Assembly: GCA_002842435.1 (NCBI GenBank)
Contig: PHCX01000002.1
Location: forward strand, 248,001 to 312,000
Reading direction: 5' to 3'
DNA length: 64,000 bases
Source: Betaproteobacteria bacterium HGW-Betaproteobacteria-1
GTDB taxonomy: Bacteria > Pseudomonadota > Gammaproteobacteria > Burkholderiales > Methylophilaceae
Positions 9,810-15,732 of the stretch are shown one piece after another. A program made the position numbers and the translations under genes. The notes under the pieces were generated by a model, which was given only the letters and a program-made list of their open reading frames with translations, had not been told where the DNA came from and did not search any database. Each line of letters starts with the position of its first letter. Position 1 is the first letter of the stretch.

Positions 9810-11126
9810 TTAATACTTGTCTTCCAGATGCAACTCGACATAGGCGCGGTCACGCAGTTCACGTACCCAGTCGGCATAGGCTTCTTCTGCCTTGCGTGAA
9901 CGGATTTCCTGACGCGCCTTGAATCTGGCGGCTTCCTGTGTCATGTCCTGTTTGCGGCGTTCCTGTACCTGGATGATATGGTAGCCGAACGGTGTACGGA
10001 CCGGCTCGCTGATTTCTCCAGGCGCCAACAGGTTCATGGCCTGTTCGAATTGCGGTACGGTATCGCCCGGGTTGACCCAGCCAAGGTCGCCGCCGCTGTT
10101 GGCAGAAGCGTCTTCCGAGTATTGTCGTGCGAGTTCAGCAAAATCCCCGCCATTGTCCAGACGTTCCTTGATCATGATCATTCTTTGCTGGGCGTCGCTT
10201 TCGGAGACGATCTCGTTCAGCTTGACCAGGATATGGCGCAGCTTGGTCTGTTCAACGACCAGAGGCGATGTGCCGCCACGCCTGTCTGTCATCTTGAGGA
10301 TGTGAAAGCCGTTAGGGCTGCGCAGGATCGGGCTCAGGTCGCCCGGTTGCATTGGTTTCAATGCTTCATTAAAGAGTTCCGGAATTTGCGTAGAGGTTTT
10401 CCAGCCGAGATTGCCGCCTTCCAGCGCATTTGGCGCATCCGAGTGACTGGCTGATACTTCTGCAAAGTTGGCGCCATCCTGCAATTGCTTTAAAGCTTGT
10501 TCGGCTTTCTCACGCAGTTTTTGCAGTTCTTCCGGCGCGCCTTCTTCCGGTGTGCGGATAAGGATGTGAGAAATCTCGAACTCGTCCTGGATGTCGCCTC
10601 GTGCGGATTGAGTCGTCAGGTAATTATCGATCTCGGCTTCGGTGACATTGACCCGGTTGTCAACCTCACGTTCGCGCAGTCTGGCGATGATGATTTCGTT
10701 GCGGATATCTTCTCGGAATTTCCTGTAGCTGATGCCCTCCTGTTCGAGTGCGGCACGAAACTCAGGAATGCTCAGCTTGTTTTGTTCGGCGATGCGCTCA
10801 ACAGTCTTGTCGAGTTGTGTGTCGTCGACACGTACGCCGGTTTGTGCGGCATATTGCAGCAACAGCCGGTCATTGATCAGGCGTTCCAGAATCTGCTTTT
10901 GCAGTACGTCCGTCGGTGGCATGTTACCGCCCTGTTTTTCCAGCTGGCTGCGTACAGTCTGGATACGGTCAATCAGCTCGTTTTCCGTAATAACGACCTG
11001 GTCGACGACAGCCACAATGCGGTCGATTTTTCTGATCTCGTCGTCTTCTGCCTGCGCAGGGCCGGCAATCAGGCCAGAGCTGGCCAGGCAAAGGAGAATG
11101 ATAAAACGGAACAAGGATGACTTCAT
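9810..11126 (-). CDS. surA: Periplasmic chaperone and peptidyl-prolyl isomerase SurA
   Basis: SurA carries unfolded outer-membrane proteins, LptD among them, across the periplasm to the BAM complex. The 438-residue product has a signal peptide (MKSSLFRFIILLCLASSGLIAGPAQA), then the N-terminal chaperone domain (about residues 30-175). Two parvulin domains follow, near residues 180-285 (HILIRTPEEG ... GGNLGW ... GFHILKM) and 295-400 (RHILVKLNE ... GGDLGWV ... GYHIIQV), and then the C-terminal helix. It starts 6 bases after the lptD stop. Cotranscription with its main client lptD is conserved in many Gram-negative bacteria. Confidence 0.97.
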   Translation of the reverse strand: MKSSLFRFIILLCLASSGLIAGPAQAEDDEIRKIDRIVAVVDQVVITENELIDRIQTVRSQLEKQGGNMPPTDVLQKQILERLINDRLLLQYAAQTGVRVDDTQLDKTVERIAEQNKLSIPEFRAALEQEGISYRKFREDIRNEIIIARLREREVDNRVNVTEAEIDNYLTTQSARGDIQDEFEISHILIRTPEEGAPEELQKLREKAEQALKQLQDGANFAEVSASHSDAPNALEGGNLGWKTSTQIPELFNEALKPMQPGDLSPILRSPNGFHILKMTDRRGGTSPLVVEQTKLRHILVKLNEIVSESDAQQRMIMIKERLDNGGDFAELARQYSEDASANSGGDLGWVNPGDTVPQFEQAMNLLAPGEISEPVRTPFGYHIIQVQERRKQDMTQEAARFKARQEIRSRKAEEAYADWVRELRDRAYVELHLEDKY

Positions 11127-11132
11127 GGAAGA

Positions 11133-13907
11133 TTACTCATTTATAGGATCGTAAGAGTTGGTGATTTCACCACTTGGACTGTAGCCGGGGATACTGCGTT
11201 CCAGCAATCGCATCGGGTTGGAGCCGATTGAGGTCAAGCCACCCAGTTCGAGCTGGAAGTACAGCGCATAGTTTGCTTCGGCCGTCGCCGTCGAAACCCG
11301 TTGCAGAACAGAACGCGCCTGCCAGCAGCCAGCGTCGTACTCGATGCCGGCCAGACCTTCAATCGGCTGATTCTCGGAGATGGAATAATTCCAGCGCCCC
11401 ATGCCGTACCAGCCACCACCCAGCGGCCACTGCCCGGAAATGTTGATCTGCTCGAGATCTTCTACGCATTCGTCGTTGAAGTCGCAAAGTGACTGTCTCA
11501 GTAGCCCACCTTCACTATAACGGTAACTGAGGTTGAGCACCTTGCCCGGTTCCGGGTTATAGCGGGCGCCTATGTTGGATTTGACCGTGGTGGAGCGGCC
11601 AGTATTGTATTGCCAGCCGGCATCGACGTTCCAGTGGTTAACCAATTTTGCCGTGACGGCTGCAACGATGTCGGAGCTGTTGTCGGTTCTTGGCGGAGTG
11701 TCAGGTGATAAGGTCACTTTCTGGTCCGAGAAATAGAAACGCTGACCGATCATGGCAGCGAGGCGCTGCTGGCCGGTGTTGGAGTCGATCATGCGGGTGG
11801 TCAGCGCCAGGCTGATCTGGTTGGCGTCGTTCACGCGGTCGTTGCCCCTGAACTGGTTTTCCAGAAACAGCGAGCCGAGATTGAGATCGCCTTCGCTGGT
11901 ATCAAATACCGGGTACATGGATTGATCCTTGTACGGGATATAGACGTAAAACAGTCGGGGTTCCAGTGTTTGTGTATAGCGGTTGTTGACTACCTTGACG
12001 TCGCGATCGAAGTAGAGGCCGCTGTCCAGGCTGAAGATGGGCAGGGTGCGGTCCGGTGCGTCGTAGCTGCGGGCCATGCCGTCTTGAATATAATTTTCAT
12101 TGCTCAGGTCGTAGCTGGTGTAGTGCACGCCGAGTTTGGGGGTGATGTAGCCGTATGGCCTTTCGAAAGGCACACTGATGCTAGGGTTCAGTGTAAAGCG
12201 ATTGCCGGTGACGTCCCGTCTGGTGATGGTTGGCTCATCCCTGTCTCTGTTGCGATCGAAGCTGACCCACTGGGTATAGAGGTCTGTTCTGATCAGGTCC
12301 CAATCCTTGTCGCCGGTCAGGGTCAGTTCCGGTAGTTTCTTATAAGGCCCGATGGAGTCGTTCAGAGTCTGATATCTTTGCACCAGGCCCCTGAAATTCC
12401 AGATTTCGTCTCGGTAATTGACGAAGGCGCGCTGCAGCAAGTTGACTCGACTGGTGGCTGTAATGGCCGTGTCGAGTTCGGAGAAATATTCGTCATCGGA
12501 GACTTTTTCATAGTTGTAACCGGCAGACCAGCCATTACCGAAACGATGTCTGTGTGACAGGTTTACGTAATACCGGTCTTCCTTGCTGATGCTGTCGGAA
12601 GGTAGGTATTCCGCGTTGTTGACGCCGGAGAAATTTTCATTGAGATAGCGGAATTCGCCCTGTAATTGCACGCCTCGTTTACTGAGTGCACGAACGCCAA
12701 AGGTGGCGTCCATTTCTGGGGAAATGTTCCAGTAGTAGGGAACCTGAACCTCAAAACCGCTACGGCTGGTAGTCCCGATAGTCGGCGACAGAAGACCGGA
12801 TTTCCTTTGGTTCAAATAGGAAAAATCTATCCACGGCGTATAGAGCAGAGGCACGCCCATGAACTCGACCCGCGCATTCAACGCAGTTGCTCTTTTTGTA
12901 TAGGTGTCGATCTCCAGCTCACTGGCCTTGATGTACCAGTCATCCTGATCCACTTCGCAGGTAGTGTAACGTGCTGACTTGAGTACTTTTTTGTGTTCCC
13001 CCTCAAAGAGCGCAACTTTTGCATCGCCCCTTGATTTTGACTGCTCTTTTCTTGAAGTCGACTCATGAGTTGCGAGATTTTCTATTTCATCTGAGAGCAG
13101 ATCGTCAATATTGTCAGATGACAACTGATCATCATCCAGATAATTCTGGTCGAGCGTGTCGCGGGTGCTTGCGGTGCTGATCTGCGGGATATCAATTATC
13201 CGGGTTTCCAGTTCGAACGATGGCTGTTGCATTTCGCCTACCGTGTCATAGAGATGCATCCTGAGCTCCGGCCCCCAGACCTTGAGTCCCTCGAATTCGA
13301 TGCGAGTATTGCCGACCACATGCAACTCGTCATTCAGAACATCGTACTCAATCTTGTCGCCATAAATGGCCTGGCCTTCCTTTTTGATCGAGGCGTTGCC
13401 GAATGAACGCATTTTGCGTTCGAGGTAAAAATCCATTTTGTCGCCTTCTACGACGATAGTGCCGGGCTCGGGGTGTGCCTCCTCCATTGTTTCGTCGGGC
13501 ACATAGGGTAGTTGCAGGCGGTGCTCGAGCTTGAGGCCGGGGTCTGCAGGCAATGCGGCAATAGCAGGTGGTTGCTCTGAAATGTTGGAATTATCGACAG
13601 GAATCAGTTCGCTCTGAATTCGGGTCAGCATGTCATTCTCGAATTCCAGCGTTACCCGGCGTTGCTCGATGAGCTGACCTTCATGCCATTTTTGATAGGT
13701 ATACTCCCAGTGGTTCTCCAGATTCTCATTTGCTGTCAAGGGCTTGCCCATGATGGATAGCACCTGGGTCTTGGTGACACCCGGCCGTAGCTGCATCATC
13801 ATTGTGGAAGTTACCACGCCATCTTGCCGCATATCCATCGCGAACAGTGATGCATTCGCCACTAGCATGAGGACAGCGGCGATCGCGATAAGATTGGTTT
13901 TGAGCAT
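11133..13907 (-). CDS. lptD: LPS-assembly protein LptD with an N-terminal BamE-like domain
   Basis: LptD is the outer-membrane barrel that inserts LPS, with LptE as plug. I chose the ATG at 13905-13907 ([20 protein letters not shown]), which starts a signal peptide cleaved near residue 23; the frame is open further up but has no signal there. Residues about 25-99 look like a BamE/SmpA-OmlA domain ([18 protein letters not shown], then HWEYTY and [17 protein letters not shown]), which LptD does not normally have. The LptA-like jellyroll covers about 149-355 and is interrupted by an acidic insert at about 246-297. The barrel runs to residue 924. Cysteines sit at 317, 808, 814 and 861. At 924 residues it is longer than most LptD proteins. 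The order lptD-surA-pdxA-rsmA is standard. Confidence 0.96.
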
Positions 13908-14050
13908 TGTTTTACGAGATGGGGAGCTAGGATTTTTTGTCAGTGATAAAATCGCATAAATCGCGTCTTTAGGCAATCCATAAATACGTGCCGGCATCTG
14001 TCCCATGCCAAAAACATCAATAATCTGTGATTTTGAAAGTCGAACATTAC

Positions 14051-15732
<1,682 letters not shown>

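What the first reader, a model, noticed from the sequence alone, without database searches (positions are those of the whole stretch)
13611..13835. LptD carries an extra N-terminal BamE-like domain
After the signal peptide, residues about 25-99 of this LptD read like a BamE (SmpA/OmlA) domain: [18 protein letters not shown], then HWEYTY, then [17 protein letters not shown]. BamE-type proteins share the pattern LRpGMTxxQVxxxLGTP ... W-Y-Y ... EQR-x-x-x-x-F. The LptD jellyroll and barrel follow in the same uninterrupted frame. BamE is an accessory of the BAM machine that folds LptD, so the client may carry its own assembly module, or the domain may help LptE docking or the hand-over from SurA, encoded next door. 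I do not know of this architecture being characterised. It has a signal peptide but no lipobox, so unlike BamE it is not a lipoprotein.
Basis: partly seen in the sequence, partly recalled or inferred. Interest (0 to 1): 0.85.

Follow-up and report, generated by a model that had tools for sequence, protein, structure and literature searches.

The report
LptD with a captured BamE domain
In a few methylotrophic bacteria the outer-membrane protein that delivers lipopolysaccharide to the cell surface (LptD) carries, fused to its front end, an unlipidated copy of BamE, a part of the machine that normally folds LptD; the fusion is real, rare, retained by selection and has moved between species, but what it does is untested.

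Summary
Window 13907..11133 (-) encodes a 924-aa LptD whose residues 31-97 match Pfam BamE (PF04355, 54 bits, cut-off 23.2). The best PDB sequence and fold matches are BamE, although the domain model is only of moderate confidence. The domain follows LptD's own signal peptide and has no lipidation Cys. It is not an assembly error: 7 of 187 Methylophilaceae genomes carry it (3 in the window's genus, 4 in a second genus), all beside an intact standalone bamE. It was not found in 150 genomes of the order or in 112 further genomes of the class. New here: (i) each genus's fused domain resembles that genus's own BamE, favouring two captures of the resident gene, though trees do not reject a single origin; (ii) in one species about 500 bp carrying the module were imported by recombination into an otherwise unfused lptD; (iii) the domain is under purifying selection (dN/dS about 0.1-0.2) but has lost residues invariant in standalone BamE. 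Most likely function (inferred, about 0.4): a client-borne BamE module that docks nascent LptD to BAM/SurA during assembly. Rival: a docking domain of the mature Lpt bridge. Verdict: new variant of a known kind.

The parts
11133..13907 (-). lptD CDS, 924 aa plus stop; signal peptide - BamE domain - linker - beta-taco - barrel
13839..13907 (-). signal peptide of LptD, residues 1-23 ([23 protein letters not shown]); homologous to the signal peptide of unfused congeners; no lipobox
13596..13838 (-). BamE domain, residues 24-104 (PF04355 match 31-97 = 13617-13817)
13467..13595 (-). poorly conserved linker, residues 105-147
13203..13466 (-). LptD N-terminal beta-taco (jellyroll), residues 148-235; PF03968 match just below its cut-off, but conserved and aligned in all LptD relatives
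11136..13037 (-). LptD barrel region, residues 291-924 (PF04453 match 443-833)
13945..13957 (-). motif ATGCGATTTTATC conserved upstream of lptD across genera, probably part of the promoter; 38 bp before the ATG
9810..11126 (-). surA, chaperone of LptD and a BamE contact in E. coli, directly downstream (context)
   Evidence: PMC9177699
893..1261 (-). lptE (PF04390 match), the plug partner of LptD, in the same window (context)
   Evidence: G000:C7:248893-249261

Best explanation
A copy of the resident bamE, starting exactly at the folded core (MDIQQGN...) and without lipobox and tether, was inserted into lptD between the signal peptide and the linker before the beta-taco. The product is an LptD with an N-terminal, non-lipidated BamE domain in the periplasm on a 40-90 residue flexible linker (shown by sequence). 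Inferred mechanism: the domain is the first part of LptD to fold. It still recognises BamE partners (SurA P2 domain, BamA POTRA4/5-BamD, or resident BamE as a second BamE), and so holds the slow-folding LptD at BAM while the barrel closes around LptE. This would parallel the specific role of BamE in building RcsF/OMP interlocked complexes. Loss of some BamE-invariant residues would tune the contact to be transient, so that it does not displace resident BamE. Confidence: anatomy and BamE descent about 0.97; retention by selection about 0.85; assembly role about 0.4.
For: Domain identity: PF04355 54 bits, PDB sequence hits, helix-helix-three-strand topology, top 24 Foldseek hits all BamE. The recruited domain is BamE itself and follows the own-genus BamE at the clear informative columns (14, 15, 53, 72, 73); g7 fused plus g7 own BamE form a clade at 99/97.8. 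The same insertion point was used in both genera. Purifying selection: dN/dS 0.09-0.22 in the domain against 0.23-0.61 in the linker of the g1 genes. The module was gained by recombination in G153. In E. coli, SurA P2 contacts BamE residues 39-72 (PMC9177699), BamE is needed for lipoprotein-in-barrel complexes, and immature LptD waits on BAM for LptE (PMC8423444). lptE, bamC and standalone bamE are all present.
Against: Three residues present in all 48 standalone BamE (Q4, G6, F39 of the 83-column core) are gone from all 7 fused domains, and R27-F28, conserved in nearly all, are changed too. The resident BamE is still there, so the module is dispensable for BAM. 168 of the 175 family genomes with a detected LptD do without it. 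No interaction was tested: the full-length model failed (pLDDT 29), and no complex could be modelled.
Confidence: 0.42

Rival explanations
1. The domain works in the mature translocon: sitting at the periplasmic end of the beta-taco, where LptA docks, it stabilises or gates the LptA-LptD bridge or holds it to the outer membrane or peptidoglycan. It keeps the BamE fold but not BAM binding.
For: It sits N-terminal to the jellyroll that receives LptA (PMC6372539). BamE-invariant residues are lost in parallel while the core is kept. Pseudomonads also have an extra ~100-residue N-terminal LptD domain of unknown function near the murepavadin site (PMC6372539), so the position is known to tolerate accessory domains.
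Against: A generic bridge function does not explain why BamE was the domain recruited, probably twice and each time from the resident gene. The linker is long and poorly conserved, which argues against rigid docking.
Confidence: 0.27
2. Tolerated, nearly neutral fusion: bamE duplicates by accident into the permissive linker of lptD and is slowly lost; it has little function.
For: Rare and patchy (7 of 187 genomes). Diverged from BamE faster than BamE itself (long branches). Standalone bamE is retained.
Against: dN/dS 0.09-0.22 in all computable pairs; frame and core intact in 7 species of two genera; module gained by recombination in G153.
Confidence: 0.2
3. One ancestral fusion, later spread and lost many times, with gene conversion from the resident bamE giving the genus-specific residues, rather than two captures (a rival on history, not on function).
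For: Monophyly of all seven fused domains is not rejected (p-AU 0.199 protein; 0.274 DNA). Same junctions. Shared changes S/A/T at 28, V81 and D82 in most fused domains.
Against: g7 fused plus g7 own BamE exclude the g1 fused domains with 99/97.8 support. Many losses would be needed, as 168 LptD-bearing genomes lack the domain. The clear genus-informative columns agree with separate origins.
Confidence: 0.3
4. Assembly chimera, frameshift or wrong start.
For: None found.
Against: Seven genomes, two genera, independent assemblies; no stop; conserved upstream motif just before the ATG.
Confidence: 0.01

Closest known systems
BamE (SmpA/OmlA; PF04355) of the BAM complex
   Same: Homologous domain; same helix-helix-three-strand fold; core residues M13, L17, P19, Q25, G31, P33, L34, W44, Y46, Y48, R60, V62, F66, L71 (83-column numbering) kept
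   Different: Not a lipoprotein, not a separate small protein; fused to LptD; Q4, G6, F39 lost; resident BamE coexists
LptD (PF04453) of the LPS translocon
   Same: Signal peptide, beta-taco, barrel, surA-pdxA neighbourhood, lptE present
   Different: Extra ~80-residue BamE domain plus linker after the signal peptide; congeners G001, G002 and G004 lack it
N-terminal insert domain of Pseudomonas LptD (~100 residues, function unknown; PMC6372539)
   Same: Extra periplasmic domain before the jellyroll
   Different: No BamE similarity detected: the window LptD aligns to the 924-aa PDB LptD 8h1r only over residues 292-910 (that 8h1r is P. aeruginosa is my recollection). Its fold was not compared here

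Membership tests
BamE (PF04355) | Profile match above the curated cut-off | tested here: met
   54.2 bits against 23.2
BamE (PF04355) | BamE fold | tested here: met
   Foldseek top hits all BamE, best E 2e-4, TMt 0.55; model of moderate confidence, pLDDT 65-82 in most of the core
BamE (PF04355) | Lipobox and lipidated N-terminal Cys | tested here: not met
   no Cys in signal peptide or domain
BamE (PF04355) | Residues invariant in family BamE (QQGN, D37, F39, R43, D45) | tested here: not met
   Q4, G6 and F39 lost in all seven fused domains; others partly lost
BamE (PF04355) | Association with BamA/BamD | not testable with these tools
   needs complex modelling or pull-down
LptD | LptD barrel profile PF04453 | tested here: met
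   363 bits
LptD | N-terminal jellyroll (PF03968) | tested here: inconclusive
   18.9 bits against cut-off 20.4, but aligned and conserved in relatives
LptD | Partner LptE encoded in the genome | tested here: met
LptD | Disulfide linking taco and barrel | not testable with these tools
   C317 and C861 are conserved in all seven fused LptD, but bonding was not shown
Pseudomonas LptD insert domain | Homology to that insert | tested here: inconclusive
   phmmer finds no N-terminal match to 8h1r; fold not compared

The most novel reading that the evidence does not exclude
An outer-membrane client that carries in cis its own copy of a BAM subunit. LptD captured the resident BamE, probably independently in two methylotroph genera, to direct its own slow assembly with LptE, and the module now spreads between species by homologous recombination in lptD.
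Probability: 0.33. Interest if true: 0.85.

Novelty: new variant of a known kind. Interest (0 to 1): 0.6.

Why it matters
What BamE does in BAM is still debated (redundant stabiliser, SurA contact, or a specific role in lipoprotein/barrel complexes; PMC13067283). A natural fusion of BamE to the most demanding BAM client is an experiment done by evolution: it points to a BamE-LptD functional link and makes that link testable by deleting or transplanting one 80-residue domain. It also shows that lptD, an essential and conserved gene, can take up and exchange an accessory domain by recombination.

Tried and rejected
Assembly artefact: rejected. Fusion elsewhere: none found in 150 genomes from 51 families of the order or in 112 further genomes of the class, one per family. 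The one 941-aa frame (G279) is a high-GC read-through around a BamE-like lipoprotein, not LptD. Domain replacing LptE, BamC or BamE: rejected, all three are present. Module exchange within the window's genus: G000/G005 divergence is higher in the domain than in the barrel, but the flanking upstream DNA is similarly diverged, so not claimed. Full-length AlphaFold model: useless, pLDDT 29. Viral contigs: no relatives. AU tests do not decide between one and two origins. The genome-contig scan reached only four close relatives.

Full report
OBSERVATION. The reported segment 13611-13835 (-) is residues 25-99 of a 924-aa LptD that starts at ATG 13907 and ends at 11133. Pfam BamE (PF04355) matches residues 31-97 with 51 bits in the full protein and 54 bits in the N-terminal 169 aa, against a curated cut-off of 23.2. 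The NCBIfam BamE equivalog is hit below its cut-off, as expected for a diverged copy. phmmer against all PDB chains returns BamE only (7jrk, 1.2e-11). The same protein carries the LptD barrel with 363 bits. A 13-base motif conserved upstream of many lptD genes of the family lies 38 bp before this ATG. Any later start would remove the signal peptide, so the domain is translated and exported. There is no Cys in the signal peptide or the domain, so it is not lipidated.

FOLD. A model built from three sequences shows helices 13-17, 24-31 and 37-41 and strands 44-53, 56-68 and 71-80 (numbering from residue 23), with block-mean pLDDT of 65-82 across most of the core but a low mean overall of 59. The 24 best Foldseek matches are all BamE (best N. 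gonorrhoeae BamE, E 2e-4, TM 0.55 by target). A full-length model failed (pLDDT 29), so the position of the domain relative to the translocon is unknown.

IT IS NOT AN ARTEFACT, BUT IT IS RARE. The genome has a normal standalone bamE elsewhere (G000:C9:203129-203335). Of 187 genomes of the family, 7 carry the fusion: G000, G003 and G005 in the window's genus, and G011, G153, G170 and G172 in a second genus (g7). All seven also keep standalone bamE. LptD was found in 175 of the 187; no other lptD frame examined holds a BamE domain. Records identify the family as Methylophilaceae (HGW-Betaproteobacteria-2, UBA7525, MTYP). No fusion was seen in 150 genomes from 51 families of the order or in 112 further genomes of the class, one per family; the few weak second matches in the order sample lie in frames far too short for LptD, apart from a read-through frame in G279 that is not LptD.

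HOW IT AROSE. In both genera the domain sits directly after the LptD signal peptide, which is homologous to that of unfused congeners, and starts at the same BamE residue (MDIQQGN), just past the lipid tether of BamE. At the columns that separate the two genera's own BamE most cleanly (14, 15, 53, 72, 73) each fused domain follows its own genus. In the protein tree the four g7 fused domains are a clade (100/97) beside the BamE of G011, inside the g7 BamE; in the DNA tree g7 own plus g7 fused exclude the window-genus fusions with 99/97.8. This favours two captures of the resident bamE. However, AU tests do not reject a single fused clade (p 0.20 and 0.27), and one old fusion with gene conversion remains possible.

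IT MOVES. On the LptD tree the fusion needs three changes, because G153 nests among unfused G182, G165 and G180. Along the DNA, G153 is about 90% identical to those sisters both upstream and from +500 onward. From about -100 to +400 it instead resembles the fused G172 (73-94% there, 65-80% in most of the rest of the gene). Synonymous divergence between G153 and G172 is 0.38-0.42 over signal peptide, domain and linker but saturated in taco and barrel. About 500 bp carrying the module were therefore imported by homologous recombination.

SELECTION. Domain dN/dS is 0.09-0.22 in all computable pairs, lower than in the linker of the window-genus genes (0.23-0.61) but higher than in taco and barrel (0.00-0.09). 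Fourteen of the 28 columns invariant in 48 standalone BamE are kept in every fused domain, mostly core residues (W44, Y46, Y48, P33, L34, F66 and others). Q4, G6 and F39 are gone from all seven, and R27-F28 are changed. So the fold is kept while some BamE surface has been given up. Placing these residues on BamA or BamD contacts needs a structure that I could not read here.

MECHANISM. Shown: the architecture, BamE descent, export signal, selection, recombination, and presence of LptE, BamC and standalone BamE. Inferred: because the recruited domain is BamE, most likely taken from the resident gene on two occasions, BamE-like contacts probably matter. In E. coli the SurA P2 domain contacts BamE residues 39-72 (PMC9177699). 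[quoted passage not shown]). LptD is a slow BAM client that waits on BAM for its lipoprotein plug LptE (PMC8423444). BAM with two BamE copies has been observed (PMC13067283). I therefore favour a client-borne assembly module at about 0.4, with a mature-bridge docking domain (0.27) and a nearly neutral insertion (0.2) as rivals. The one-origin scenario is a rival on history, not on function.

KNOWN OR NEW. I found no description of a BamE-LptD fusion in the open-access library; papers outside that library were not searched. Pseudomonads have another extra N-terminal LptD domain of unknown function (PMC6372539) without detectable sequence similarity to BamE. I file this as a new variant of LptD, not as a BamE protein: the BamE profile and fold are met, the lipobox and invariant-residue tests are not.

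Noticed in passing
window 13945-13957 (-) and lptD upstream regions of many Methylophilaceae loci: Motif ATGCGATTTTATC with an upstream ATTGCC..AAA block, conserved before lptD across genera (a relaxed form was found in 67 of 90 loci scanned, some loci being duplicates); probably the lptD promoter or a regulator site in the lptD/amgK divergent region.
   Followed up: partly
L097 (G037:C3:65000-78000): A 1134-aa LptD frame from another family of the order with a long Ala/Pro-rich N-terminal extension holding a repeated motif (EPFSVDPGLLGG / APFEVDPALLGAP); no BamE match.
   Followed up: no
L159 (G279:C61:3500-9500): Two neighbouring lipoprotein genes, each with what look like two BamE-like repeats in tandem, in a genome of the same order.
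   Followed up: no
G012:C36:12885-14711 and G012:C68:1119-2990: Two lptD copies in one Methylophilaceae genome (4% contamination estimate, so perhaps a mixed bin).
   Followed up: no
L079 (G026), L080 (G023), L081 (G100), G011:C1:548706-548906: Second, separate BamE-domain proteins in some Methylophilaceae, not fused to LptD.
   Followed up: no
window 14027-15732 (+): Divergent from lptD lie a phosphotransferase and a nucleotidyltransferase gene that look like amgK-murU (cell-wall recycling).
   Followed up: no
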